This document shows positions 39,047 to 53,935 of a DNA stretch of 64,000 nt, in pieces. The notes under the pieces were generated by a model, which saw nothing but the letters and a program-made list of their open reading frames with translations, ran no database searches and was not told the origin of the DNA. A program made the position numbers and the translations under genes. The stretch is from Candidatus Poribacteria bacterium. Its GTDB lineage: Bacteria; Poribacteria; WGA-4E; WGA-3G. How positions within the stretch are numbered: position 1 is the stretch's first letter; the number at the start of each line of letters is the position of its first letter. The stretch is from positions 62,001 through 126,000 of the forward strand of contig JAPPII010000124.1 of the NCBI GenBank assembly GCA_028820845.1, given 5' to 3'.

Positions 39047-41194
39047 TTACGGAACGGCTTCATATCTAAGGATTGTCCCGTTCTGCCCAACGACCCATCC
39101 GCTATTTGAATTACTGACGTAAATAGCCTTCAAATCTGTGCGTGTATCCGTACGTTGGGGTCTCCAATTCTGTCCACCGTCCTTTGTGTGTAGGACGAGT
39201 CCCTCTTTTCCGACAATCCAGCCTTTTGTTTCAGAGATAAAAAATACGTCGTCAAGGAAATTCGCAGTATGACTCTCTTGACGTTGCCACGTTTTTCCGC
39301 CATTATCCGTATGAAGGATCAATCCATCCATACCCAAACTGCGAAGATCCAATCCGACGACCCACCCCTTGTCTGCTGTGATGAAGGTAACGGCATCTAA
39401 CAAAAAGAATGAGTGGTTTCTGCTAATAGCGGCGGGATGCCAATGGTCACCACCGTCGAGCGTAGAAAGAATCGTGCCGCTCATCCCAACTGCCCAGCCG
39501 CGTTGTTTTGAGGTAAAATGAATGTCAAAAAGATTCCAGGTCGTTCCACTCTCTTGGCGTTGCCAGGTCTGTCCACCGTCGTCTGTATGAATAATTTCGC
39601 CGGCACTCCCAACACACCATCCTGTTTCTTCGTCCACAAAGAAGACGGCGAGTAATTCTTGCGTCGTTTGGCTCTCTTGGCGTTGCCAGAGGCTTCCACC
39701 GTTTGTGGTGTGCAAGACCACACCGGCTTCCGCAACCGCCCACCCTTTTTCTGGAGACACAAAATGCGTTGCACCGAAACATTCAGTGGTTCGGCTATCT
39801 TGTGCATCCCATACAGCCCCGCCATCTTCAGTGCGTAGGATCGCGCCGCGATCGCCTACAACGTACCCTTCTTTTGAAGAGACGGCGCAAACATCGACAA
39901 GGAGATGGCTCGGACTTGATTGCGATTCCCAAGTTATACCGCCGTTCCGGGTGTGTAGAATCGTGCCGTTTTCGCCGACAGCCCAACCGAGTCGTTTAGA
40001 GACAAAGTCAACGCCTAAAAGGACAGCATCGGCACTGTTGTGGAAACGCGGGCCGCCACGCTGGTGTTTCCATTTGCCTTTCCCGCCAGATGCCGTGTGG
40101 AGAATAACACCTAAGTCACCGACAATCCAGCCGTTTTGGGAGTCCGTAAAGTCGATGTCGTAGAGCGTAAAGGTGTGGAGCGGCTCATTGCCGAGATACT
40201 CCGGCTGCCCATAACTGCTTTTATGCCGTTGGTTGCTCCCGTCAGTGATGAATTCCCATGTCTGTCCGCTGTTAGTTGTTACAAAGACGCTCCGCCGATC
40301 ACCGACAATCCAGCCAGTTTGTTCGTCAATAAAGTGGAGGTTGAAGAGAGCCTGCGCTGTCGTAAACTGCTCTTCCCATGACTGCCCACCATCTGTTGTT
40401 CGGTAAATATAGCCTGGGTTTACGTTGTTCGAGGTTCGTGAATCTCCAATACTTGTTCCTGATGTTGGCGTATTGTAGGTGATAACCCATCCCAGATGTG
40501 CGTTCACGAAGTGAACTCCTTTCAAGGACTTTCTACCAAATATGCCTGCGTCAGCCTGCGTAAACGTCTTTCCGCCGTCGGTTGTTTTGAGCAATGTCCC
40601 CCAATCCCCGACGATCCAACCTGTAGTTTCACCTATAAAGATGTCGTGCAGGTTATTTTCCGTACCTGTTTTGATATGGGACCACGTCTTCCCGCCATTG
40701 GTCGTATGGATGACTGTTCCGCTTTCTCCAGTGCACCATCCCTCTAATGCAGAGCGAAAATAAACTTTGCGCAGCGGTTTATCGAAAACGCTACTGCTCT
40801 GCCTATGCCATGTTTGTCCACCATTGTTTGTGTGGATGATGAGGCTTTCAGCCTCTTCCGTAAAGTCTTGCCCCGGAATAATATCTACTGCATTGCCGAC
40901 TGCCCATCCTTGTGTTTCAGAGATGAAGTGAACGTCATATAGGTGTGAGCTCCAATCACCTTCCATAACGGTTTTCCACTCGTACTGGATTTGTCGTTTG
41001 GACGCACTGTTTTCACAACCGACTATAGATAGAATACCGATGAACAGCACGAGAAGATAATTCTTAGTTATCAGTAGCGGGTAGTCAGCTAATTTCTCTG
41101 GCAGTTGCCTATTGTTTGCATACCCCAAACATCTCTTTAACTGACAACTGATAACTGATAACTGAAAACCACTAAAAAAGGACTTCGCTAACAT
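39047..41194 (-). CDS. Ycf48-like (photosystem II assembly factor type) BNR propeller lipoprotein
   Basis: About 715 residues with at least ten repeats of the form GWAVG...GTILHT-x-x-GG-x-TW (for example GWCTGESGTVIHTTNGGKTW, GWVVGKEGLVLHTKDGGQNW), predicting one or two Ycf48-type propellers. A hydrophobic segment ends at the lipobox LSIVGC, so the mature protein is probably lipid-anchored. The true start is uncertain. The first 45 residues of the frame come from an ACTGATAACT inverted repeat between the genes. ATG 41194 has AAAGGA upstream but overlaps the end of dapB; a GTG at 41050 is possible. The protein is unlikely to relate to photosynthesis here. Confidence 0.75.
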   Translation of the reverse strand: MLAKSFFSGFQLSVISCQLKRCLGYANNRQLPEKLADYPLLITKNYLLVLFIGILSIVGCENSASKRQIQYEWKTVMEGDWSSHLYDVHFISETQGWAVGNAVDIIPGQDFTEEAESLIIHTNNGGQTWHRQSSSVFDKPLRKVYFRSALEGWCTGESGTVIHTTNGGKTWSHIKTGTENNLHDIFIGETTGWIVGDWGTLLKTTDGGKTFTQADAGIFGRKSLKGVHFVNAHLGWVITYNTPTSGTSIGDSRTSNNVNPGYIYRTTDGGQSWEEQFTTAQALFNLHFIDEQTGWIVGDRRSVFVTTNSGQTWEFITDGSNQRHKSSYGQPEYLGNEPLHTFTLYDIDFTDSQNGWIVGDLGVILHTASGGKGKWKHQRGGPRFHNSADAVLLGVDFVSKRLGWAVGENGTILHTRNGGITWESQSSPSHLLVDVCAVSSKEGYVVGDRGAILRTEDGGAVWDAQDSRTTECFGATHFVSPEKGWAVAEAGVVLHTTNGGSLWQRQESQTTQELLAVFFVDEETGWCVGSAGEIIHTDDGGQTWQRQESGTTWNLFDIHFTSKQRGWAVGMSGTILSTLDGGDHWHPAAISRNHSFFLLDAVTFITADKGWVVGLDLRSLGMDGLILHTDNGGKTWQRQESHTANFLDDVFFISETKGWIVGKEGLVLHTKDGGQNWRPQRTDTRTDLKAIYVSNSNSGWVVGQNGTILRYEAVP
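41065..41156. repeat. Inverted repeat AGTTATCAGT / ACTGATAACT
   Basis: 10-base arms at 41065-41074 and 41147-41156, with further ACTGATA units nearby. It falls where the N-terminus of the Ycf48-like frame would otherwise be read. Confidence 0.55.
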
Positions 41195-41969
41195 CGTGCA
41201 ATCCTTTGGGAGCGTTGACGACCCATCTCGCTGCGCGAATCGCACCTTTGGCGAATGCTTCCCGATTGTGGGAACGATGAATGATGTTTAATTGTTCACC
41301 CTCGGTTGCGAACAGGACAGTATGATCTCCGGCAATATCACCACCACGGACAGCGTGAGTACCAATTTCCTGTTGGGTCCGCGCGCCGACGATACCGTGG
41401 CGACCGTAGACCCCAATCTCTGCTAAATCACGCCCTAATGCTACAGCGACGGTCTCTGCTAAACGGAGGGCAGTGCCGCTGGGTGCATCTGTTTTGCGAT
41501 TATGATGTGTCTCGATCGTCTCAATATTGTAATCATCTCCGAGGGCTTTCGCAATTAATTCCGATGCTTGGATCATTACATTGACACCGAGGCTCATATT
41601 GGGTGCCATGACGCAGCGCGTCTGTGAGGCAAGCGTTTTAACGATAGTCAATTCATTGGTGCTGAAACCTGTTGTTCCAATAACCACCGCTTTATCAGCG
41701 TCAACAGCCTGTTGGAGATACTGTACAGTTGCTTCTGGCTTCGAGAATTCGATGATAACATCCGCGCTGTCAAGGACATCCTCAAGCTTACCTGTGACAG
41801 GTACCCCAATCTCGCCGATGCCTGCGACAACGCCAACATCACTTCCGATTTGTGGGTGTCCAGAATATTGAATCGCCCCAACAAGTTCCATATCAACCTG
41901 TTCGGCAATGCCTTGTGTAATACACCGACCCATGCGACCGCAGACACCGGTGATAACGACACGGATCAT
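41172..41969 (-). CDS. dapB: 4-hydroxy-tetrahydrodipicolinate reductase, copy 1
   Basis: Start ATG 41969 is supported by AAAGG and by the Rossmann motif beginning at VVITGVCGRMG; the frame extends upstream without support. 265 residues. IGTTGFS is the nicotinamide-side loop, and ETHHNRKTDAPSGTA carries the catalytic His pair and Lys; KGAIRAARWVVNAPKGLHDVSEVLF is the usual C-terminus. All key residues are present. A second, very similar dapB lies 231 bases upstream on the same strand. It supplies tetrahydrodipicolinate to DapL. Confidence 0.93.
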   Translation of the reverse strand: MIRVVITGVCGRMGRCITQGIAEQVDMELVGAIQYSGHPQIGSDVGVVAGIGEIGVPVTGKLEDVLDSADVIIEFSKPEATVQYLQQAVDADKAVVIGTTGFSTNELTIVKTLASQTRCVMAPNMSLGVNVMIQASELIAKALGDDYNIETIETHHNRKTDAPSGTALRLAETVAVALGRDLAEIGVYGRHGIVGARTQQEIGTHAVRGGDIAGDHTVLFATEGEQLNIIHRSHNREAFAKGAIRAARWVVNAPKGLHDVSEVLF

Positions 41970-42064
41970 GTTTTTACCTTTTATAGTAAAGCCGAAAAAT
42001 ATGTGGATACTTATAGCACAAACTTGCCTCGCAGTGAGAGTTTGTGTAAAGTGTGCACGCAAAC

Positions 42065-42200: not shown

Positions 42201-42998
42201 CTAAAAAAGGACTTCACTGATGTCGTGCAATCCTTTGGGAGCATTGACGATCCATCTGGCGGCGCGAATCGCACCTTTGGCAAATGCCTCTGGACTGTGT
42301 GCACGGTGGACAACACTTAATTGTTCACCCTCGGTTGCGAACAGGACAGTGTGATCCCCGGCAATGTCACCACCACGGACGGCGTGGATACCAATCTCTT
42401 GTTGTGTCCGCGCACCGACGATGCCGTGGCGACCGTAGACCCCTACTTCCGTTAAATCACGTCCTAACGCTGTAGCAACGGTTTCCGCTAAACGGAGGGC
42501 TGTGCCGCTCGGGGCATCTGCTTTGTGATTGTGATGTGCTTCTATCACCTCAATATTGTAATCGTCTCCGAGGGCTTTCGCAATTAATTCCAATGCTTGG
42601 ATCATCACATTAACACCAAGGCTCATGTTCGGAGCCATGACGCAGCGAATCTGGGACGCAAGCGCGTTGATAGTTGCGAGTTCATCGGGCGTGTAACCGG
42701 TTGTTGCAATGACCATCGCTTTATCAGCAGCGACGACTTGCCGGAGGTGTTGCACAGTCGCTCCTGGACTTGAGAACTCGATAACGACATCCGCACTTTC
42801 AATTACATCGTCAAGCTCACTTGTAATAGCGATGCCAGTTTCACTCATGCCTGCAACAACGCCAGCATCACTCCCGATTTGTGGGTGTTCAGGATATTCG
42901 ATTGCGCCAACAAGTTTCATATCCTCTTGTTGGGCAACACTTTGGATAATGAGCCGACCCATGCGACCGCATGCTCCATTAATAATTACACGAACCAT
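42201..42998 (-). CDS. dapB: 4-hydroxy-tetrahydrodipicolinate reductase, copy 2
   Basis: 265 residues, co-linear with copy 1. The Rossmann motif VIINGACGRMG and catalytic EAHHNHKADAPSGTA are intact; the nicotinamide loop reads IATTGY in place of IGTTGF. The C-terminal half is almost identical to copy 1, while the N-terminal half differs at many positions. Both copies therefore look functional, but cofactor handling may differ. They could be a recent tandem duplication under partial gene conversion. Confidence 0.92.
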   Translation of the reverse strand: MVRVIINGACGRMGRLIIQSVAQQEDMKLVGAIEYPEHPQIGSDAGVVAGMSETGIAITSELDDVIESADVVIEFSSPGATVQHLRQVVAADKAMVIATTGYTPDELATINALASQIRCVMAPNMSLGVNVMIQALELIAKALGDDYNIEVIEAHHNHKADAPSGTALRLAETVATALGRDLTEVGVYGRHGIVGARTQQEIGIHAVRGGDIAGDHTVLFATEGEQLSVVHRAHSPEAFAKGAIRAARWIVNAPKGLHDISEVLF

Positions 42999-43089: not shown

Positions 43090-44058
43090 TTACTTCAATG
43101 TCAGCAAATATGCCATGAGGTCTTCCATCTGCTTTACTGAAAGAATATCTGCGAAGTTTTCGGGCATAACACCCGCTTGTGGCACACTGGTAGCCCTTAT
43201 ATCCTTTTTGTAGTAAGTTGTCCACAACTTCCCTGATTCGTCAAGTATTTGCACGACATCGGGGTTTTCTCTATCTCTGTGATCGTAGAGGTACCGTTTC
43301 TTGCCAGTGATTTCCTCTCCGTCTATGGTGAGGATCGTGAGCATTTCGTATTCAGGGGCTATATAAGCGCGTGGATTGAGGATAGACTCCACAATGAAGT
43401 GTGGGGCGCGGGTGCGAGCAATATAAGTCAAATCGGGGCCTATCTCATGACCAGTCCCGGTAGCACCTCTGCCATGAACTGCATGGCATTTACCGCAAGC
43501 GTATCCGTCAGAGTAGAAGATAGCCTCTCCGGCTTTGACATCACCCTCCATGTACGGTGTCCATTCTTCGCTCTGTTTTATCTCTTCCAAGGAGACCCCC
43601 GCCGCCTTTGCCTGCTCCGTGCGGAGATAGCCGACAATCATGTTGATTGCTTCATCGGAGAGTTTGCCGCCGAATTTTTGCATTTCAGTTCCCGGTAATC
43701 CGTTGAATACGGTTTGGAAGATACCACTATCGGTCCATCCATAGAGCCACTCGGCTTTGAAGAGATCGGGTGCTTGTCCGCCACGAGTGCGTCCGGCGTG
43801 GCAGTTCCAACACATTAAGCGAAAATAAAACGCACCGTCTATGACATCTTCATCATAACTGTGTTCCGGCGGTGCTGCCGGTGCGATATCCACTTCCATC
43901 TCTTGGGCATCTACAAGTGATAGCGAAAACAGACTCACACCTAAAAAAAACAGAAGGAGAATACTACACGCTGTGTATATGGCAGAAGTTGTACGCTCAG
44001 ACATTTTGCCAGCGCGCTTGCGAAGCGCGCCTATGAAGCTACAAGTAGAGTGTATCAT
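43090..44058 (-). CDS. Dihaem c-type cytochrome (XoxG-like role)
   Basis: 322 residues from ATG 44058, which has AGGAGGAGG just upstream and shares TAATG with the stop of the previous gene. A secretion signal with hydrophobic core lies at residues 28-51. Two haem sites are visible: CWNCH (83-87) and CGKCH (188-192); conserved Met residues follow each. Placed after a PQQ dehydrogenase and an XoxJ-like protein, it is the likely periplasmic electron acceptor. Residues 9-17 are encoded by a GCGCGCTT/AAGCGCGC palindrome, and an internal ATG at 44004 (MSERTTS) gives a cleaner signal peptide but a weaker ribosome site. Confidence 0.87.
   Translation of the reverse strand: MIHSTCSFIGALRKRAGKMSERTTSAIYTACSILLLFFLGVSLFSLSLVDAQEMEVDIAPAAPPEHSYDEDVIDGAFYFRLMCWNCHAGRTRGGQAPDLFKAEWLYGWTDSGIFQTVFNGLPGTEMQKFGGKLSDEAINMIVGYLRTEQAKAAGVSLEEIKQSEEWTPYMEGDVKAGEAIFYSDGYACGKCHAVHGRGATGTGHEIGPDLTYIARTRAPHFIVESILNPRAYIAPEYEMLTILTIDGEEITGKKRYLYDHRDRENPDVVQILDESGKLWTTYYKKDIRATSVPQAGVMPENFADILSVKQMEDLMAYLLTLK
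44012..44030. repeat. GCGCGCTT-GCG-AAGCGCGC palindrome inside the cytochrome ORF
   Basis: Eight-base perfect stem with a three-base loop between the ribosome site/ATG and the signal peptide. Probably a dispersed palindromic element inserted in frame. Confidence 0.6.
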
Positions 44059-44930
44059 TACTTTTCCTCCTCCTGAAACGGAGCGTAGTAGGGTAAATGG
44101 TACTTCTGAACAATCCCTTTAAGTTTTTCCCCACTCCATTTCTGTTCGATAATTGTGTTAACAGCGTTTTGAAGTGCTTGTGTATCTCGCTCTGCCGTGT
44201 TTTTACTGAAAGCGATAGAGACATTCCAACGGAGACGAGATGGCGGCATGTATCCAGCAACAACTTCTAATTCAGGATAAGCTGTTTCTGTTTGTGCTGC
44301 CCGCTGAAGACGGGATCCTTTTTCAATCAACCAACCCGAGTTTGCCCACATACATCCGTAAGCGATTTCACCTTTCTGTAGCGCATCCAGAACAGCGATT
44401 TGTGAACGATAAACCCGGCGGTTGTATCCCATCTGTCGAAGCACGTCACTCGCGATCGATCCAGCCTCTGTACCAATCGTTTCCAGTTTGATGTCTTCCA
44501 GTGTTTTGGGGGACTGTTGCAAATCTTTCCGCTTTATCAACACATAACCGGTGCCGTAATACGGTTTAGAGAAGTCAACATTCTGACCCAACTGGACGTT
44601 TTCACTCATCGCGCGCTCTTCAATAGGGATTCCGATAACGCAGTCGCAATGCCCGCGTAACATATCAGCGAGCAAGCTATCCCGGAGCGAATCGAGCCAA
44701 TGGAGTTCCAGTTTAACCCCTAATTCTTCTGCCAGTAGATGTGCTATCTCAACATCTACTCCTGGGAGTTCTGGATCGGCATTAGAATAGGGCAGATTCC
44801 GAACGTCCATGCAGACTGTCAACACTCCTTTTTCTCTAATCTCTTCCAAGGCATCGTCAGCATCCGCATTGTGCAATATCGAACCGGACAGCGTGAAAAG
44901 CAATACCCATAAAAGTATGTGATATTTCAC
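44058..44930 (-). CDS. Quinoprotein-associated periplasmic binding protein (XoxJ/MxaJ-like)
   Basis: 290 residues with a signal peptide (ILLWVLLFTLSGSILHNADA). The family 3 solute-binding fold is seen in KGVLTVCMDVRNLPYSNADPELPGVDVEIAHLLAEELGV and VDFSKPYYGTGYVLIKRK. This matches the class of binding-protein-like factors found beside PQQ methanol/ethanol dehydrogenases, thought to help activate or mature the dehydrogenase. Its gene lies 197 bases after the dehydrogenase and overlaps the cytochrome gene by one base, so the three form a unit. An ordinary amino acid binding protein is less likely given this context. Confidence 0.82.
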   Translation of the reverse strand: MKYHILLWVLLFTLSGSILHNADADDALEEIREKGVLTVCMDVRNLPYSNADPELPGVDVEIAHLLAEELGVKLELHWLDSLRDSLLADMLRGHCDCVIGIPIEERAMSENVQLGQNVDFSKPYYGTGYVLIKRKDLQQSPKTLEDIKLETIGTEAGSIASDVLRQMGYNRRVYRSQIAVLDALQKGEIAYGCMWANSGWLIEKGSRLQRAAQTETAYPELEVVAGYMPPSRLRWNVSIAFSKNTAERDTQALQNAVNTIIEQKWSGEKLKGIVQKYHLPYYAPFQEEEK

Positions 44931-45127
44931 AGGGCAAACCTCCTTTATTGGTTATTAGCAGTTAGCAGATAGCGTATAGCATATAGTAATTAGCGAATAA
45001 CAATTAGCAAAGACGCAAGCGTTCCGTAACGCCTCTTTTCTTTGCTATAAGTGCAGCGACTTATACGCTACATGCTAATCGCTATAAGCGTAGCGACCTG
45101 ACCACTGAAAGCGTAGCGACCTGACTG

Positions 45128-46858
45128 CTATTCATCAAAGAGCGCGAACACATAGAGGGTGCCGCCTTGGCGGGCGTTAACTTCGGCATATTTCACCGCA
45201 CCCGATGCTATGACAACATATTGAACACCATCAAGTTGATAGGTAATCGGTGGCGCGAGCACCCCGGATCCAGTTTGGAAGTCCCAAAGCACTTCGCCGG
45301 TTTCTGCCGATAATGCCATGAATCTTCCCTCTAAGTCCCCTGCAAAAACGAGACCGCCCGCTGTTGTGAGGCATCCACCCCATTGTGGGAAGTTCGTTTT
45401 GTGCCGCCATTTAATTTCACCTGTAGAAACGTCAATCGCGCTAATGTGCCCCCACATCTCCATGTCGCCAGCGGCATCTCTTTCTGCCGTCATACCGCTT
45501 CCAAGATAGGGTAAACCTTTCACATAGAAAACGCGACCTTGATGGTAGGAACCACAAAGTTCTAAAGACGGGACATAGAGATGGTTTGTGAGAGGGTTAT
45601 AGGCTGAAGGAGGCCAATTTTTCCCACCTTCAACACCAGGACATACGCGAATCGTCCCTTCTTCCGTGGTAAACACGCCCGGTTTGACAGTCGGACGCCC
45701 GTTTTCGTCGAGTCCCGCAGACCAATTCATTTCGCAATACGGACTTGCATATAAGAACTTCCCGTTGGTTCTATCAAGCACGTAGAAATAGCCGTTACGG
45801 TTTGCCTGCATCAGTGCCTTAGTCGGCTTCCCATCAATGTCCATGTCAATGAGAACCGGTTCACTCACGCCATCCCAGTCCCAAACATCGTGGGGTGTGG
45901 CTTGGAAGTGCCATTGGAGTTTACCGGTATCGGCATCAAGTGCGACAATGCAGTCGGTATAAAGATTGTCACCCCTGCGAACAGCCCCGTTCCAGTCGGG
46001 TGCAGGATTGCCCGTTCCCCAGTAGACAAGATTCAATTCTGGATCGTATGAGCCGGTGACCCAAGCAGAGCCGCCGCCTGTCATCCATGAATCGCCTGCC
46101 CATGTGTCGCCGCCGGGTTCATCTTTTGAAGGAACAGTGTAAAACCGCCACGCTTGTTCACCCGTTTCAGCGTAATACGCGTCAATGTAGCCGCGAATGC
46201 CGTATTCCGCACCAGATATCCCGACAATCACTTTGTCTTTGACAACTAACGGGGCAACGGTCAAAGATTCAGCGTTGGTTGAATCTCCAACGACTCTATC
46301 CCACAGTACCGTTCCAGTTTTCACGTCAAGCGCAAGGAGATGGGCATCGAGGGTTGTCCAAAAGACTTTGTCTCCAAGAATGGCAGCACCGCGATTGACC
46401 ATACCGCAGCAGATAGCCAGACCATCTTGGAGCGGATAATTATATCGCCATATTTCCTTGCCCGTTCTGGCATCCACGGCGTAAATACTGCTATAGGGGG
46501 TTGTGATAATCATTACCCCGTCTATAACAAGCGGAGTGCATTCAAACTTATCGAACCTTGTTCCAATTTGAAACGCCCATTTCGGGACGAGTTTTTTGAC
46601 GTTTTCGGTGTTAACCTGTGTGAGTTCGCTATATCTCCAACTTCTATAGTCGCGTCCATACATCAGCCAGCTTTCCTGATCGCCTTGTGAGGACAATAAC
46701 ATCTCATTGGTAACGGGTCGGATATTATTGACATCGGTACCCGCTGTAACAATCCCCGGTGTCGCAACAAGTGATAGGGCTACCACAAAGATGACGAGGC
46801 TTACGCGTTTTGTGTGTAGACAATCGCTTGCTGCTTTGAAAAAAGTCTGCACGCTCAT
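45128..46858 (-). CDS. PQQ-dependent alcohol dehydrogenase, lanthanide type (XoxF/ExaF-like)
   Basis: 576 residues with a signal peptide ending near VATPGIVTAG. An eight-bladed PQQ propeller is evident from W-motifs (GKEIWRYNY, GTVLWDRVV, GEIKWRHKT, GEVLWDFQT). Active-site features: vicinal Cys-Cys at 150-151 (the disulfide over PQQ), Glu218 in GAEYGIRG, Asn284 in GTGNPAPDW, and Asp327-Trp-Asp329 in HDVWDWDGV. The second Asp of D-x-D is the extra ligand that marks lanthanide-dependent enzymes; calcium enzymes have Ala or Ser there. It oxidises a primary alcohol in the periplasm. Ribosome site AAGGAGAGG. PQQ synthesis genes are not in the window. Confidence 0.9.
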   Translation of the reverse strand: MSVQTFFKAASDCLHTKRVSLVIFVVALSLVATPGIVTAGTDVNNIRPVTNEMLLSSQGDQESWLMYGRDYRSWRYSELTQVNTENVKKLVPKWAFQIGTRFDKFECTPLVIDGVMIITTPYSSIYAVDARTGKEIWRYNYPLQDGLAICCGMVNRGAAILGDKVFWTTLDAHLLALDVKTGTVLWDRVVGDSTNAESLTVAPLVVKDKVIVGISGAEYGIRGYIDAYYAETGEQAWRFYTVPSKDEPGGDTWAGDSWMTGGGSAWVTGSYDPELNLVYWGTGNPAPDWNGAVRRGDNLYTDCIVALDADTGKLQWHFQATPHDVWDWDGVSEPVLIDMDIDGKPTKALMQANRNGYFYVLDRTNGKFLYASPYCEMNWSAGLDENGRPTVKPGVFTTEEGTIRVCPGVEGGKNWPPSAYNPLTNHLYVPSLELCGSYHQGRVFYVKGLPYLGSGMTAERDAAGDMEMWGHISAIDVSTGEIKWRHKTNFPQWGGCLTTAGGLVFAGDLEGRFMALSAETGEVLWDFQTGSGVLAPPITYQLDGVQYVVIASGAVKYAEVNARQGGTLYVFALFDE

Positions 46859-47055
46859 ATTTCCTCTCCTTGTTCTATCAATAATACAATCCCAATTTCC
46901 TATCCTTTTAAATGCTATATCACATAAGGAGGCGCGAGGCCTCTCTCTCGCTGTTTCAGGTGTAGATACCTCAGGTTTTAATTTATCAAAAATTAGATTT
47001 TATGTAAACCGGAAAAATCTCGTCTAATGCAGATTTGCCTTCATATCTACGGAAT

Positions 47056-47094
47056 TTCATAGGGATTCATAGTATTCATAGTATTCATAGTAAC
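47056..47094 (+). repeat. ATTCATAGT tandem units
   Basis: Four units of about 9-10 bases (TTTCATAGGG, then ATTCATAGT three times), ending ATTCATAGTAAC. The 12-base reverse complement GTTACTATGAAT lies at 47182-47193. Confidence 0.65.
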
Positions 47095-47128
47095 GTTCTG
47101 AACATTGCGTCTTTAGAACCTTCATAAA

Positions 47129-47295
47129 GTGAGGTGTGGCATGGGTTTATAGGTTGTTTGTGAAGCAGGCACTTTTTTGGTGTTACTATGAATCCGAATT
47201 TTGGGGTTCTGAGAATTAGGCGTGAAAAGTCAATGGTGGTGTAGGTTTATAGGGGATTCCGAGTTGTGTACTTTTGGGGTGGTTACTATGAAAGT
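47129..47295 (+). repeat. Two imperfect direct repeats spaced exactly 100 bases
   Basis: TTTATAGG at 47146 and 47246, ACTTTT-rich blocks at 47171 and 47270, and GTTACTATGAA at 47182 and 47282. They lie in the 565-base gene-free stretch (46859-47423) upstream of the PQQ dehydrogenase. That stretch also has a degenerate TATGTAAACCGGAAAAAT at about 46998 and no ORF. Confidence 0.65.
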
Positions 47296-47423
47296 TGTGT
47301 GTCTCTTTGTTATACTTTATTTAACGTTATGATTAAGAGTTATGCAAGGATTTCCTGAATCAGGATTTTGGAGTTACAAGACAGACGAGATCGCCTCGCT
47401 TGATTTACGATTGACATGTCCAG

Positions 47424-48320
47424 TTACCCTAATTGTGCTTGTTCTCCAGCGTGGTAGGAACTCCGCACAAGGGGGCCAGATTCCACGTGCCGAAAGCCCA
47501 TCTCTATCCCGACTTCTTTGAGTTCGTCAAATTCTTCGGGGGTATAATAACGTTGTATCGGTAGGTGACGTGTGGAGGGTGAAAGATATTGCCCGATGGT
47601 AATAATATCGCAGCCGGTATTACGGATGTCCTGCATTGTCTCTAAGAGTTCTGTGATTGTCTCGCCTAAGCCTACCATGAGTCCCGATTTGGTGAGCATT
47701 TGGGCGTCGAGCTGCTTGACTATTTCGAGGAGTGTTAGGGTCTGTTGGTAGTTGGCGTACGGGCGGACCCTGCGGTAGAGGCGCGGCACGGTTTCGGTGT
47801 TGTGATTCAGAACTTCAGGACGGGCGCGTACAATAACATGAAGTGCTTCCCAATTTCCTTCGAGATCAGGAATGAGAACTTCGACTGTACATCCGGGTTG
47901 ATTTTTCCGGGCTTCGGTGATGCATTCTGCGAAAACACTCGCGCCGCCGTCGGGTAGGTCGTCACGGTTAACAGAGGTAATCACGACGTGTTTGAGTTTT
48001 AAGTGTGCAACAGCCTCACCGATGCGTCTCGGTTCATCGGTATCAACAATGCCACCGGGCGCGCCTTTCTTGACAGCACAGAACATACAACGCCTCGTGC
48101 AGACATCACCTAATATCATGAAGGTTGCAGTCCGACTGTTCCAGCATTCGCCGATGTTCGGACATCGCGCTTCTTCACAAACAGTGTGAAGTTCCAAGTC
48201 GCGCATCAATTTTTTGAGTTCCGCGTAGTTGCCGCCACCTGGGATCCTCGCCTTAATCCATGATGGATGGCGGCTTTGCTGTCTATTCACGTTGACGATA
48301 GGGAGGGTTTTTAACATCAT
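47424..48320 (-). CDS. lipA: Lipoyl synthase
   Basis: 298 residues. The auxiliary cluster ligands are C48, C53 and C59 (CEEARCPNIGEC), and the radical-SAM CxxxCxxC is C74, C78, C81 (CTRRCMFC). The C-terminal RSSYHA supplies the last cluster ligand Ser. LipA inserts two sulfurs into octanoyl groups on lipoyl-dependent enzymes. Full length, no oddities. No lipB is adjacent; a tRNA-Sec and selB follow upstream on the same strand. Confidence 0.96.
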   Translation of the reverse strand: MMLKTLPIVNVNRQQSRHPSWIKARIPGGGNYAELKKLMRDLELHTVCEEARCPNIGECWNSRTATFMILGDVCTRRCMFCAVKKGAPGGIVDTDEPRRIGEAVAHLKLKHVVITSVNRDDLPDGGASVFAECITEARKNQPGCTVEVLIPDLEGNWEALHVIVRARPEVLNHNTETVPRLYRRVRPYANYQQTLTLLEIVKQLDAQMLTKSGLMVGLGETITELLETMQDIRNTGCDIITIGQYLSPSTRHLPIQRYYTPEEFDELKEVGIEMGFRHVESGPLVRSSYHAGEQAQLG

Positions 48321-48352: not shown

Positions 48353-48446
48353 TGGCGGGAGAGGGTGGGAGTCGAACCCACCTATCCACTTGCATGGACA
48401 AGCCGGTTTTGAAGACCGGTAGGGCCACCGGACCCTATCCTCCCCC
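48353..48446 (-). tRNA. selC: tRNA-Sec (UCA anticodon)
   Basis: 94 bases on the minus strand, ending in an encoded CCA. The 8-bp acceptor stem (GGGGGAGG / CCTCTCCC, one G-U) and 5-bp T stem, six-base D stem with four-base loop, anticodon loop CTTCAAA with UCA, and long variable arm are the bacterial tRNA-Sec pattern. It lies 20 bases downstream of selB and is probably expressed with it. It delivers selenocysteine at UGA codons with SECIS elements. Confidence 0.95.
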
Positions 48447-48465: not shown

Positions 48466-50406
48466 CTATGCCTGTGAGTGCCGTGGGTGCAATCTTCGGA
48501 CGTTCCCGTCTCGGATTGTGAGGTTTTGACTATCGCAGTACTCTAAAAACGGCACCGCATATTTTCGAGATGTTTCTGCGATTTCGCGGAATTCCGCAAC
48601 AGTTATTATATCATTTTCGCGGAGATACGTAATTAATAATTCCTGCACCGCTTTGAGAGCGACACTATGAATGAAAAGATCATCGGCTATCCTAACGAAT
48701 CGCCCCAAGCGAAGAAGCGCGTAAAAGGTTGATTCAAGGACTTTCGGTGTATATTCGGGCAATCGCGTGCTAAGTTCCTTGAGTGTGGGTGTATGGATAC
48801 CTGCTTCTAAGAATAATTTCTCTAACGTCTCCTTGGCGGTCTCTTCCTCTTGGGAGAACTGAATTTCATGGGAGGCAAGACGTAAGAGATTACCATCTTT
48901 AACGAGTTGACGCTCCGCAGTGAGTTGATTCTCCAATTTCTCAAAGCCAGTTTCGTCCAATCCAACCTCACTACGAAGCTGTGTGGCGTTTTGTCCGGGG
49001 AGAAGAGGTTGTGCTTCATGGAAATCTGCTAATGCGTTTAATAATTTTTCTTTCGTTTTTGCAGTGCGTGGGGCATCGGAGACTAAAGGGTTCCTGCCAG
49101 ATTTGTCCCAACGCACAATTTTCCTATCGGCTTCTAAGCTGCCTAAAATGGCTTTCACATGCTGCTGTGAATGTGGAAGATAGTAGTGGAGGAAGGACTC
49201 CGGGACGCAAAACGTCTTGCTATTTTCCAGAACGGTGTTAACTACTTGGGCATTATCAGCCTCTTCCCATTGTGCTAAAGTGGTTATGGTTTCCGGTGTA
49301 AACCGTTTGTGCTTAGGCGCGAAGGGGTTGATAACCTCGCCCCCGCCGACGGTATATTGCGCTGAGAAGTCTCTCAAGATAATCCGATCTCCCCTAAACG
49401 TTAGAATCGGTTGTTCTAAACGGAGTTGCGCTTGCACGGTATCTCCCGGTAGAATTGCCTCGTCAACCAATAGGATCAATCGGCAGAATATCTCACGGGT
49501 CCCGATATACGCACGGAGACGGCTCCAATGTTCCAATATTCTTGGAAAGGAGGACAGCACTCGCAATGACACGTCGATGTTGTTAGTTACCTGAGAAAAC
49601 TCGGTTGGGCAGAGAACATCGCCGCGTTGAATATTTTGAACAGAGGTGCCTGACAGGTTGAGTGCTGTTCTTTGACCTGCTTGGGCAACGGATGCTGGTT
49701 CGTTATGCACCTGTATACCCCGCACCCGGACTGGATCTCCTTGCGGTAGAATTACCATTCGCTGGTCGCGGTTGATGGAACCTCCAATAAGCGTCCCGGT
49801 GACAACGATGCCAAATCCTTGAACCGTAAAAACCCGGTCAACATAGAGTCGTGGGATTCCATCACTTTCCTCAACTTTTGTTGCGAGTGTTACTTGTTCA
49901 ACAATCGTCTGCTTTAGGGTATCAATACCCGCACCGGTTATTGAGGAGACGCTAACGGTGGGAATCCCTTCGAGGCTTGTTCCGACAAGCATTTCCTGTG
50001 TCATTTCTGTGGCTTCCGCCAATTCGTCTGCCGTTGCCAAATCCGATTTCGTCATGACGAGAATGCCGTTTGAAATGCCTAACAGATCCAGGATTGCTAA
50101 GTGTTCAAGTGTTTGTTCTTGGACCCCTTCCTTCGCGTCTACCACAAAGAGGACGATATCCATACCGTAAGCACCGGAGAGCATACTTCGGATAAATTTC
50201 TCGTGTCCGGGGACATCGACGATCCCAGCCCGTGAGTTATCGGGCAAATCGAAGTAAGCGAAACCTAATTCGATGGACAGCCCGCGTTCGCGTTCCTCCT
50301 TGAGTCGGTCTGTCTCCATGCCGGTAAGTGTGCCAATTAGGGCAGTTTTCCCGTGGTCCACGTGTCCGGCTGTTCCGATGATGAGATGTCGTCTGTCTTG
50401 ATGCAT
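48466..50406 (-). CDS. selB: Selenocysteine-specific elongation factor SelB
   Basis: 646 residues. The N-terminal GTPase domain has GTAGHVDHGKT (P-loop), ERGLSIELGFAYF, DVPGHEKFIRSM and TKSD. EF-Tu-like domains 2 and 3 follow, and the C-terminal third (from about 400) contains winged-helix repeats that bind the SECIS RNA, ending EYCDSQNLTIRDGNVRRLHPR. It places Sec-tRNA at internal UGA codons. selA and selD are outside the window. It is paired with tRNA-Sec, as in many selenoprotein-making bacteria. Confidence 0.95.
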   Translation of the reverse strand: MHQDRRHLIIGTAGHVDHGKTALIGTLTGMETDRLKEERERGLSIELGFAYFDLPDNSRAGIVDVPGHEKFIRSMLSGAYGMDIVLFVVDAKEGVQEQTLEHLAILDLLGISNGILVMTKSDLATADELAEATEMTQEMLVGTSLEGIPTVSVSSITGAGIDTLKQTIVEQVTLATKVEESDGIPRLYVDRVFTVQGFGIVVTGTLIGGSINRDQRMVILPQGDPVRVRGIQVHNEPASVAQAGQRTALNLSGTSVQNIQRGDVLCPTEFSQVTNNIDVSLRVLSSFPRILEHWSRLRAYIGTREIFCRLILLVDEAILPGDTVQAQLRLEQPILTFRGDRIILRDFSAQYTVGGGEVINPFAPKHKRFTPETITTLAQWEEADNAQVVNTVLENSKTFCVPESFLHYYLPHSQQHVKAILGSLEADRKIVRWDKSGRNPLVSDAPRTAKTKEKLLNALADFHEAQPLLPGQNATQLRSEVGLDETGFEKLENQLTAERQLVKDGNLLRLASHEIQFSQEEETAKETLEKLFLEAGIHTPTLKELSTRLPEYTPKVLESTFYALLRLGRFVRIADDLFIHSVALKAVQELLITYLRENDIITVAEFREIAETSRKYAVPFLEYCDSQNLTIRDGNVRRLHPRHSQA

Positions 50407-50495: not shown

Positions 50496-51266
50496 TTAAG
50501 GATGTCCATGAATGATTTTACCGATTCGGTTGAACCTGACATTCCCTACCAGTTTCCACACTTGCCAGAGTTTCGCCGGTCGTGCATCAAATGACCAATA
50601 CACCATAAACGCTTGCCCTTTGATGTCGTTTATATCTACTGGTCCCCAAGAGCGGCTGTCGCTGCTCTGGTCTCTGTTATCACCCATTGCGAAGACTGTG
50701 CCTTTCGGAATAGTAAACGGTTTCCCTTCTGGGAATTTACGACTAAATTGGCTTGCTGTTAAAGTGTAATCCGAAAATGCTTCGTTATCAGGCAGATATT
50801 CCGGTTGCCGAAACGGCGGGAAATTACCTTTTCTAAAGTGGCTGAAGGACATGTATTTCGTATAGTGACTGTCATCAACTGCTTTGCCGTTTACATAAAG
50901 TGTATTACTGCGGGTTTCAACGGTATCGCCTTCAACGGCTACGATGCGTTTAATGAAATTGCGTTCTCGGTCGTGAGGCGGGATGAAAACGAAAACGTCA
51001 CCGCGCGCGGGCTTATGGAAATCAAAGACCTTGATACTCGTGCCAGGAATTTTAACCCCATAAATGAACTTGCAAACCAGAATTCGATCTCCGATCAGGA
51101 GTGTATCTTCCATCGAACCTGAAGGGATCTTGAAGGCTTCGACAACAAAAGGACGTATGAATCCAAAAACAAGAATCAGCGCGACGACGATAACTTGCGT
51201 GTATTCCCATACGACGGTCTGCCGAAATTTCTGCCATTTAGATAGCTGGGTGTCGTTGTTATTCAT
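50496..51266 (-). CDS. lepB: Signal peptidase I, copy 1
   Basis: 256 residues with a single N-terminal membrane helix (VIVVALILVFGFIRPFVV). The catalytic Ser is S51 in PSGSMEDTL and the Lys general base is K106 in FIKRIVAVEGD; MGDNRDQSSDSRSWGPV is box E. It cleaves signal peptides at the outer face of the inner membrane. It lies 49 bases downstream of a close paralogue, itself directly after lepA. Confidence 0.94.
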   Translation of the reverse strand: MNNNDTQLSKWQKFRQTVVWEYTQVIVVALILVFGFIRPFVVEAFKIPSGSMEDTLLIGDRILVCKFIYGVKIPGTSIKVFDFHKPARGDVFVFIPPHDRERNFIKRIVAVEGDTVETRSNTLYVNGKAVDDSHYTKYMSFSHFRKGNFPPFRQPEYLPDNEAFSDYTLTASQFSRKFPEGKPFTIPKGTVFAMGDNRDQSSDSRSWGPVDINDIKGQAFMVYWSFDARPAKLWQVWKLVGNVRFNRIGKIIHGHP

Positions 51267-51315: not shown

Positions 51316-52122
51316 TTAGTTCACCTTGAACGAATCCGCGTACGATGGGATAAGTTTGCCGATTCGGTTGAACCGAATATTGCCTATCATCTTCCAGACT
51401 TCCCACGGTTTTACAGGGCGATTGTTGACCGAAAACATCACCATAAAAGCCTGTCCCTTAATATCATCTACTGAGACAGGTCCCCATGTGCGGCTATCAC
51501 TGCTCTGGTCGCGATTGTCGCCCATTGCGAAGACCATGCCTTTCGGGACAGTGAACGGTTTGCCTTCTGGGAATTTACGACTAAACTGGCTTTCTGTCAA
51601 GGCATAATTGTCATAATTTTCGCCATCGGGGAGATATTCAGGTTGCCGAAATGGTGGAAAATCCCTTCTAAAGTGGTCAAATGGTAAGTATTTCGCATAA
51701 CTGCTATCGTCAACGGTTTCGCCGTTCACGTAAAGCGTATCCCCACGGGTTTCAACGGTATCCCCTTCAACGGCTACAATGCGCTTAATAAAATGTCGCT
51801 CGTCGTGTGCTGGAATAAAAACGAAGACATCTCCGCGTGCGGGTTTATGAAAGTCAAAAACCTTAATATCCGTGCCAGGGATTTTAACGCCGTAGATAAA
51901 CTTGCAAACCAGAATCTGATCGCCAACGAGAAGTGTATCCTCCATTGAACCAGAGGGAATTCTATACGCCTGAACAATAAACGGATTTACGAAGCCGAAA
52001 ACAAAAATGAGTGAAACGATAATTTGCTTTATAACCCCATGAATCTCGGATTTGTGATTTTTTTTCTGTTTGACTAATTTTGGTTCAAACCTTTGAATAT
52101 GTTTCTGTGTATTCTTATACAT
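51316..52122 (-). CDS. lepB: Signal peptidase I, copy 2
   Basis: Start ATG 52122 is chosen: GAGG is upstream and the gene then begins 7 bases after the lepA stop. 268 residues with a slightly longer basic N-terminus than copy 1. Ser59 (PSGSMEDTL) and Lys113 (FIKRIVAVEGD) form the catalytic dyad; MGDNRDQSSDSRTWGPV is present. Most of the protein is nearly identical to copy 1; the N-terminal 30 residues and the C-terminus differ. Both copies look active. Confidence 0.93.
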   Translation of the reverse strand: MYKNTQKHIQRFEPKLVKQKKNHKSEIHGVIKQIIVSLIFVFGFVNPFIVQAYRIPSGSMEDTLLVGDQILVCKFIYGVKIPGTDIKVFDFHKPARGDVFVFIPAHDERHFIKRIVAVEGDTVETRGDTLYVNGETVDDSSYAKYLPFDHFRRDFPPFRQPEYLPDGENYDNYALTESQFSRKFPEGKPFTVPKGMVFAMGDNRDQSSDSRTWGPVSVDDIKGQAFMVMFSVNNRPVKPWEVWKMIGNIRFNRIGKLIPSYADSFKVN

Positions 52123-52129
52123 TTCTATA

Positions 52130-53935
52130 TCATTCCTCAGTTGCGAGCATGGCAGTGAATGCTTCTTGGGGGACATCAACGTTGCCAATTTGTTTTAGCC
52201 GTTTTTTACCTTCTTTTTGTCTTTCCAGCAATTTCCGTTTTCGTGTCACATCCCCACCGTAGCATTTCGCTGTGACGTTTTTGCGGAGTGCGCGCACTGT
52301 CTCACGAGCGACAATCTTGTTCCCAATCGCCGCTTGAACCGGGACTTCAAACATCTGTCTCGGAATTAATTCCTTGAGTTTGCTGACTAATACTTTCCCC
52401 CGCGCCTCTGCGGTGTCTCGTGGTAAGATAGTAGAGAGTGCGTCTACCGGTTTACCGTTGAGTAGGATATCCAGTTTCACGAGTTTTTCGGTTTTGTATT
52501 CGCCAATATCGTATTCTAACGACCCATATCCACGGGTCAGCGATTTAAGTTTCGGATAGAAATCCATCAGCATTTCACTGAGTGGGAGTTCATAAAGTAA
52601 TTGGACACGTTTTGCGTCCAATTGGTTCATTCGCTTGTATATACCCCGTCGCTTCTGACAAAGTTCCATTGCATTTCCAATGTACTCGCGCGGCACAATG
52701 AGATCAATGTTCACATAAGGTTCTTCAATCCGATCAATATCGTTGGGTTCCGGGAGATGCGCTGGGTTGTCGACCGGGATGTACTCACCGGTTTTCAGGA
52801 GGACTCGGTACATAACACTCGGTGCAGTCCGAACAAGCGCGAGACCGAATTCCCGTTCAAGACGTTCATGGATGATCTCCATGTGTAGCAACCCCAGAAA
52901 ACCGCACCGGAACCCAAAGCCGAGGGCAACAGAGGTTTCGGGTTCAAAATTGAAAGAGGAGTCGTTGAGACGTAATTTATCGAGTGCCTCACGCAACGCA
53001 TGGAATTGATTGGTATCTGCCGGATACAGCCCGCTAAATACGAGCGGTTTCATCTCGCGGTAGCCTGGTAGCGGTTCTGCTGTCGGTTTCGTGTGGTGTG
53101 TGATGGTATCCCCGATTTTTGCCTTGTCAATTTCTCGAATACCGGCAATGAGATATCCAACGGCTCCAGTGTCGAGTTCGGCAGTCGGTTCCATCTCCGG
53201 TGTAAAAATGCCTACCTCCTCAACCTCGTAGGAGCGTCTGGTCTCCATGAGCTGAATCTTCTCGCCTTGTTTGATACTGCCCTCAAATATTCGCGTATAC
53301 ATGATGACACCGCGATAGTTGTTGTAGATAGAATCGAGGACGAGTGCCTTCAATGGCGCGTCAATTTCGCCGACGGGAGCAGGGATTCGATTGACGATTG
53401 CTTCCAATATTGCGGGAATGCCGATTCCCATCTTGGCACTCACGAGGAGGGCATCGTCTGCTGGAATACCAATGACTTCTTCTATCTGTCGTTTGGCTTC
53501 ATCGGGTTGTGCCATTGGCAAATCAATTTTATTGATGACAGGAATAATCTCAAGATCGTTGTCAATGGCGAGGTAAGCGTTGGCGAGGGTTTGTGCTTCG
53601 ACACCTTGTGCGGCATCGACAATTAAGATCGCACCTTCGCACGCCGCGAGACTCCGCGAGACCTCATAGGTAAAATCGACATGACCGGGCGTATCGATTA
53701 AGTTGAGTTCGTAGCGGTTTCCATCGGGGGCGGGATAGTGGAGTTTGACAGCGGTCGCCTTAATCGTAATACCGCGTTCACGTTCCAGATCCATCAAGTC
53801 AAGTACCTGGTCACGCATTTCACGATCAGCGAGTGTATTGGTGTGCTCAAGGAGCCTGTCGCTGAGCGTGCTTTTCCCGTGGTCGATGTGTCCTAAGATG
53901 CAGAAATTCCGTATATTTTCAAGCTTCGTTGGCAT
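52130..53935 (-). CDS. lepA: Elongation factor 4
   Basis: 601 residues. GTPase motifs [27 protein letters not shown] and NKID are present. The LepA-specific C-terminal domain has [30 protein letters not shown] and ends with [19 protein letters not shown]4 back-translocates stalled ribosomes. lepA followed by lepB is a widespread gene order. The ATG has no clear ribosome site. Confidence 0.97.

What the first reader, a model, noticed from the sequence alone, without database searches (positions are those of the whole stretch)
44058..45128. Lanthanide-type PQQ alcohol dehydrogenase with XoxJ- and XoxG-like partners
The dehydrogenase carries D327-W-D329, the extra-Asp signature of lanthanide-dependent quinoproteins, plus Glu218, Asn284 and the Cys150-Cys151 pair. 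A binding-protein-like gene and a dihaem cytochrome follow in one coupled unit (43090-46858). If the organism is a sponge-associated Poribacterium, this would place rare-earth-dependent alcohol oxidation in an unexpected lineage.
Basis: partly seen in the sequence, partly recalled or inferred. Interest (0 to 1): 0.65.

Follow-up and report, generated by a model that had tools for sequence, protein, structure and literature searches.

The report
Rare-earth-type alcohol oxidase operon in Poribacteria
A group of uncultured, mostly sponge-associated bacteria (Poribacteria) keeps a three-gene operon for an alcohol-oxidising enzyme that has every residue needed to hold the cofactor PQQ and a rare-earth metal, yet these bacteria appear unable to make PQQ, so the enzyme would have to be loaded with a cofactor made by neighbours.

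Summary
The dehydrogenase is 45128-46858 (-). It has every PQQ and lanthanide-site residue checked against XoxF 4mae (E218, N284, D327, D329, C150-C151, R156, R354). Its best sequence and fold match is the lanthanide enzyme PedH. It is under strong purifying selection, intact in all 17 Poribacterial copies aligned.

The host is Poribacterial: 26 of 38 genomes of its genus carry the gene. The enzyme is not XoxF, PedH or a calcium clade. It lies in a well-supported separate clade with Acidobacteriota and Gemmatimonadota proteins, two branches of which have lost the PQQ site while keeping D-W-D. The partners are not XoxJ or XoxG by family cut-offs. They are a divergent family-3 binding protein found only with the dehydrogenase, and a dihaem cytochrome whose relatives sit beside, or are fused to, the acidobacterial enzymes.

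New points: no PqqC or PqqE in any of 38 genus genomes and no E. coli-type PqqU, with working controls. One outgroup Poribacterium does encode PqqU. Likeliest: a lanthanide-type, non-methylotrophic alcohol dehydrogenase loaded with scavenged PQQ. Metal and substrate are untested.

The parts
45128..46858 (-). PQQ alcohol dehydrogenase, 576 aa, signal-peptide-like N-terminus; site residues E106, C150-C151, R156, T200, E218, W253, N284, D327, D329, R354, N414-W415
   Evidence: ORF; TIGR03075 650 bits > 480; residue mapping to 4mae; AlphaFold model closest to PedH 6zcv
44058..44930 (-). family-3 periplasmic solute-binding protein, 290 aa (GTG start), divergent from XoxJ/MoxJ
   Evidence: PF00497 51.7 bits; TIGR03871 72 bits < 212; present in 26 of 28 genomes with the dehydrogenase and 0 of 57 without
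43090..44058 (-). dihaem c-type cytochrome, 322 aa, CWNCH (83) and CGKCH (188); ATG overlaps the preceding stop codon
44931..45127 (-). 197-bp gap between dehydrogenase and binding protein, with short imperfect repeats
46859..47423 (-). upstream non-coding region likely to hold the operon promoter; only weak sigma-70-like matches, no more than in shuffles
47424..48320 (-). flanking lipA (lipoyl synthase), conserved upstream neighbour, not part of the operon
   Evidence: synteny across Poribacterial loci
42201..42998 (-). flanking dapB (first of two tandem copies), conserved downstream neighbour, not part of the operon
   Evidence: synteny

Best explanation
A periplasmic PQQ-dependent alcohol dehydrogenase with a lanthanide-type active site. 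It oxidises alcohols (probably C2 or larger, not for methylotrophy) and passes electrons to the dihaem cytochrome encoded two genes downstream, which would feed the respiratory chain. The operon-specific periplasmic binding protein is an accessory whose role is unknown; delivery or assembly of cofactor or metal is a guess. Because the genus lacks PqqC and PqqE, the apo-enzyme would be loaded in the periplasm with PQQ made by other members of the community. Shown: gene content, intact site, selection, conserved operon, absence of PQQ genes. Inferred: PQQ loading, metal, substrate, electron path, source of PQQ.
For: All checked site residues map onto XoxF 4mae, including both Asp. Best PDB match by sequence and by fold is lanthanide PedH, TM-score 0.84. 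dN/dS 0.05-0.07. The operon is conserved in place between lipA and dapB in the genus. The binding protein occurs in 26/28 genomes with the dehydrogenase and 0/57 without. Relatives of the dihaem cytochrome lie directly next to the dehydrogenase gene in Acidobacteriota, and are fused to it in L087, L062 and L079. PqqC absent in 38/38 genus genomes, including single-contig ones, and PqqE above cut-off in 0/38, with positive controls at 313-523 bits. Poribacterium G015 has the same operon plus a PqqU-type importer with the published signature residues F99/R304/R365. Relatives with an intact site in Gemmatimonadota genomes G085 and G095 also have PqqU and no PqqC above cut-off. Fae is absent in 38/38, against classical methylotrophy. 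Scavenging of PQQ by non-producers is established (PMC12124388).
Against: No biochemical data for metal, PQQ or substrate. No PqqU-type importer was found in this genus, so the PQQ route is unknown (porin diffusion or another transporter). D-W-D persists in relatives without a PQQ site, so it is not by itself proof of lanthanide use. The fused cytochrome-dehydrogenases are mostly of the PQQ-site-less type. No lanthanide-uptake genes were looked for. MAG incompleteness could hide genes in single genomes, though not across 38.
Confidence: 0.6

Rival explanations
1. A PQQ alcohol dehydrogenase that uses calcium, or either metal, rather than depending on lanthanides.
For: Its clade contains no experimentally tested member, and D-x-D is kept even where the PQQ site is gone, so D-x-D may be ancestral rather than selected for lanthanides. 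The paper on ocean PQQ enzymes predicts metal promiscuity for some D-x-D enzymes (PMC11996626).
Against: Every Ca-type structure compared has Ala, Ser or Thr at the second Asp; every Ln-type one has Asp. PedH, the nearest characterised relative, is lanthanide-dependent (PMC5487730).
Confidence: 0.22
2. An 'empty' quinoprotein: the host makes no PQQ, and the protein binds another ligand or has a non-catalytic role, as proposed by name for the acidobacterial TIGR04528 group.
For: No PQQ synthesis genes or PqqU in the genus. The protein scores 525 bits on TIGR04528, and its clade contains two branches that have lost the PQQ site.
Against: It fails the TIGR04528 cut-off (525 < 650) and passes TIGR03075 (650 > 480). 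Vicinal Cys pair, catalytic Asp, Glu, Asn and PQQ Arg are all retained in 17/17 copies, whereas site-less relatives lose them.
Confidence: 0.13
3. A XoxF-type methanol dehydrogenase with true XoxJ and XoxG, supporting methylotrophy in Poribacteria.
For: Same three kinds of gene in one operon, as in S. meliloti xoxF-xoxG-xoxJ; D-x-D site.
Against: Outside the XoxF/MxaF clade with full support; the cytochrome is dihaem and unrelated to XoxG at detectable level; the binding protein is below the XoxJ family cut-off; Fae absent in the genus.
Confidence: 0.05

Closest known systems
PedH / ExaF, lanthanide-dependent alcohol dehydrogenase (PDB 6zcv, 6zcw)
   Same: Best match by sequence (453 bits) and fold (42% identity); same metal and PQQ ligands including D-x-D.
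   Different: Separate clade; different cytochrome partner (PedH systems use PedF, monohaem); no PQQ synthesis in the host.
XoxF methanol dehydrogenase with XoxJ and XoxG
   Same: D-x-D site; operon of dehydrogenase, periplasmic binding protein and cytochrome c.
   Different: Not in the XoxF/MxaF clade; dihaem cytochrome; binding protein below cut-off; no Fae.
Acidobacteriota/Gemmatimonadota PQQ dehydrogenases of the same clade (L027-L049)
   Same: 45-50% identity, same site residues, dihaem cytochrome gene adjacent.
   Different: Cytochrome lies upstream and no binding-protein homologue was found in the loci; Poribacterial copies form one clade.
Acido-empty-quinoprotein group A (TIGR04528)
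   Same: Second-best NCBIfam model (525 bits); same wider clade; partner dihaem cytochrome.
   Different: Below cut-off; PQQ site intact here, lost in site-less relatives such as L055 and L062.
PQQ scavengers with PqqU (PMC12124388)
   Same: Quinoprotein without PQQ synthesis; Poribacterium G015 carries PqqU.
   Different: This genus has no detectable PqqU.

Membership tests
PQQ-dependent methanol/ethanol dehydrogenase (TIGR03075) | Score above curated cut-off | tested here: met
   650 bits > 480
PQQ-dependent methanol/ethanol dehydrogenase (TIGR03075) | PQQ-site residues (vicinal Cys pair, Glu, Asn, catalytic Asp, Arg) | tested here: met
PQQ-dependent methanol/ethanol dehydrogenase (TIGR03075) | Binds PQQ and oxidises alcohols | not testable with these tools
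   needs purified protein
Lanthanide-dependent PQQ dehydrogenases | Second Asp two residues after the catalytic Asp, at the metal position | tested here: met
   D329 = 4mae D301; 17/17 copies
Lanthanide-dependent PQQ dehydrogenases | Activity depends on Ln rather than Ca | not testable with these tools
   no biochemistry; D-W-D also kept in PQQ-site-less relatives
XoxF | Placement in the XoxF/MxaF clade | tested here: not met
   XoxF/MxaF clade 100/100 excludes it
PedH/ExaF | Placement in the PedH/ExaA clade | tested here: not met
   PedH/ExaA clade 100/100 excludes it
XoxJ/MoxJ | TIGR03871 or TIGR03870 above cut-off | tested here: not met
   72 < 212 and 47 < 258 bits; S. meliloti XoxJ control 296
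XoxG / cytochrome cL | Monohaem, sequence match to XoxG/MoxG models | tested here: not met
   two CxxCH; 22 bits on TIGR03872 (cut-off 148); best E 0.85 to XoxG
Acido-empty-quinoprotein group A (TIGR04528) | Score above cut-off | tested here: not met
   525 < 650; but the site-less L055 and L062 also score below it, at 549 and 541
PQQ producers | pqqC and pqqE in the genome | tested here: not met
   0/38 genus genomes; controls positive. PqqA, PqqB and PqqD were not searched
PqqU-based PQQ scavengers | PqqU homologue with Y/F/W99, R304, R365 | tested here: not met
   genus: one weak TonB-receptor match in G079, residues L99/R304/E365; met in G015

The most novel reading that the evidence does not exclude
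Sponge-dwelling Poribacteria keep a rare-earth-dependent quinoprotein that works only as a community enzyme: the symbiont supplies the apo-enzyme and its dihaem acceptor, while PQQ (and perhaps the lanthanide) comes from other members of the sponge holobiont by a route other than PqqU, possibly using the operon's own binding protein.
Probability: 0.3. Interest if true: 0.75.

Novelty: new variant of a known kind. Interest (0 to 1): 0.5.

Why it matters
It adds Poribacteria to the lineages with lanthanide-type alcohol oxidation and points to an enzyme clade (Poribacteria plus Acidobacteriota, Gemmatimonadota, Planctomycetota) with no characterised member. The combination of an intact, strongly selected quinoprotein with no PQQ synthesis and no known importer makes cofactor exchange inside the sponge microbiome a testable question. 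The same clade contains members that lost the PQQ site but kept D-W-D and the cytochrome partner, which warns against using D-x-D alone to count lanthanide enzymes in metagenomes.

Tried and rejected
PqqE-like hit in the own genome (L089, 119 bits): a SPASM radical SAM protein closest to AhbD/NirJ-type haem synthases, not PqqE. PqqC-like fragment in G015 (L094): only 132 aa at a contig end, 83 bits, below cut-off, in a genome with 7% contamination; left undecided. E. coli PqqU in the genus: only one weak TonB receptor without the signature residues. Promoter and terminator scans: no more sites than in shuffles. Literature: no paper joins Poribacteria with lanthanides. The four that join Poribacteria with methanol dehydrogenase looked off topic from titles and abstracts and were not opened. 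Three alignment or scan calls failed because match ranges held an upstream stop and were rerun with trimmed ranges.
Full report
WHAT IS THERE. The reported interval 44058-45128 covers the middle gene and a gap. The operon is 43090-46858 on the - strand: a PQQ dehydrogenase (45128-46858, 576 aa), a 197-bp gap, a family-3 periplasmic binding protein (44058-44930), and a dihaem c-type cytochrome (43090-44058) whose start overlaps the preceding stop by one base. All three begin with a hydrophobic, signal-like N-terminus.

ACTIVE SITE. They align with E172, N256, D299, D301 and the C104-C105 pair of XoxF 4mae; R156 and R354 match R110 and R326. Among the reference structures, all lanthanide enzymes have Asp at the second position and the calcium enzymes have Ala, Ser or Thr. 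The AlphaFold model (mean pLDDT 82) is closest to PedH, 6zcv, with TM-score 0.84 and 42% identity. Side-chain geometry was not measured.

HOST AND DISTRIBUTION. The window lies in a 5.69-Mb genome. The nearest named relatives are Candidatus Poribacteria MAGs, 83-98% identical. In 85 genomes of the phylum the dehydrogenase is found in 28: 26 of 38 in the genus, one in the same order (G015, 80%), and one decayed copy with 12 stops (G024). It is absent from the 21 genomes of the sister genera. The operon sits between lipA and dapB in the genus, which indicates vertical inheritance with patchy loss or one early gain. dN/dS against other copies is 0.05-0.07 for the dehydrogenase, 0.08-0.15 for the binding protein and 0.07-0.14 for the cytochrome. 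That the host lives in sponges is likely from the relatives' sources but was not tested.

PHYLOGENY. In a careful tree (IQ-TREE) the XoxF/MxaF, PedH/ExaA and type II quinohaemoprotein groups each have 100/100 support. The Poribacterial proteins (100/100) fall in a different clade (100/99) with proteins of Acidobacteriota and Gemmatimonadota; a larger, quicker tree agrees. Two branches of that clade have lost the PQQ site: one lacks the Cys pair and has Gly or Asp for the catalytic Glu, the other has Leu-Tyr or Ile-Tyr for the pair. Both keep D-W-D. So D-x-D alone is weak evidence, and the case for a lanthanide-type quinoprotein here rests on the full set of residues.

PARTNERS. The binding protein is operon-specific: 26 of 28 genomes with the dehydrogenase have it and none of 57 without do. 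The two exceptions are the decayed G024 copy and G068, whose contig shows a truncated dehydrogenase running into the cytochrome. It is not XoxJ by cut-off (72 against 212 bits; S. meliloti XoxJ 296). The cytochrome is dihaem in all full-length Poribacterial copies. Its relatives, also dihaem, lie directly next to the dehydrogenase in most of the acidobacterial loci and are fused to it in L087, L062 and L079. This makes it the probable electron acceptor. The fused enzymes are of the site-less type, which weakens that argument somewhat.

COFACTOR SUPPLY. PqqC is absent from all 38 genus genomes, three of which are single-contig and carry the operon. PqqE above cut-off is absent from the same 38. 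The models work: the genomes behind L040 and L042 score 313-322 bits for PqqC and 500-523 for PqqE. The E. coli PQQ importer PqqU has no credible homologue in the genus, although the same search finds clear ones in two Gemmatimonadota genomes and in Poribacterium G015. The G015 protein has F99, R304 and R365, the published signature, and Glu at position 274, a change that PMC12124388 suggests could allow metal co-binding. PqqA, PqqB and PqqD were not searched. The simplest reading is dependence on external PQQ by a route not identified here.

WHAT IT PROBABLY DOES. Fae is absent from all 38 genomes, so methylotrophy by the tetrahydromethanopterin route is unlikely; other formaldehyde routes were not tested. 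Oxidation of ethanol or larger alcohols is favoured because PedH is the nearest characterised enzyme, and PedH turns over methanol poorly. This is inference.

KNOWN BACKGROUND. Lanthanide-type PQQ dehydrogenases were reported in 14 of 33 marine phyla (PMC11996626), and PQQ scavenging without synthesis is established (PMC12124388). No held paper joins Poribacteria with lanthanides. A metaproteome of the sponge Aplysina aerophoba lists ExaA-type alcohol dehydrogenase among frequent proteins and six Poribacterial oxidoreductases (PMC6081418). Whether those are this enzyme could not be checked, because supplements were not available.

VERDICT. A real, conserved, selected operon. It is a new variant of a known kind, with a correct core observation, an over-specific XoxF/XoxJ/XoxG label, and an unexplained PQQ supply that is the most interesting part.

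Noticed in passing
L055, L062, L065, L083; L068, L073, L080, L081: Acidobacterial relatives have lost the PQQ site in two different ways but keep D-W-D; several still pair with, or are fused to, the dihaem cytochrome.
   Followed up: partly
L118 (Poribacterium G015): PqqU-type PQQ importer with F99, R304, R365 and Glu at position 274; appears to be the first PqqU seen in Poribacteria among the papers read.
   Followed up: partly
L094 (G015, contig end): 132-aa fragment matching the first half of PqqC at 83 bits, cut by the contig end; could be PqqC-like or a related CADD-family protein.
   Followed up: partly
48353-48446 and 48466-50406: Selenocysteine tRNA next to selB: the organism has at least part of the selenocysteine machinery.
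   Followed up: no
41172-42062 and 42201-42998: Two tandem dapB genes, retained side by side in most relatives whose loci reach that far.
   Followed up: no
50496-51266 and 51316-52188: Two tandem signal peptidase I genes.
   Followed up: no
G024:C155:59668-60717: Decayed copy of the dehydrogenase with 12 in-frame stops in another family of the same order.
   Followed up: no
L026 (G068): Dehydrogenase truncated after residue 332 and running into the cytochrome gene, binding protein missing: internal deletion or assembly error.
   Followed up: no
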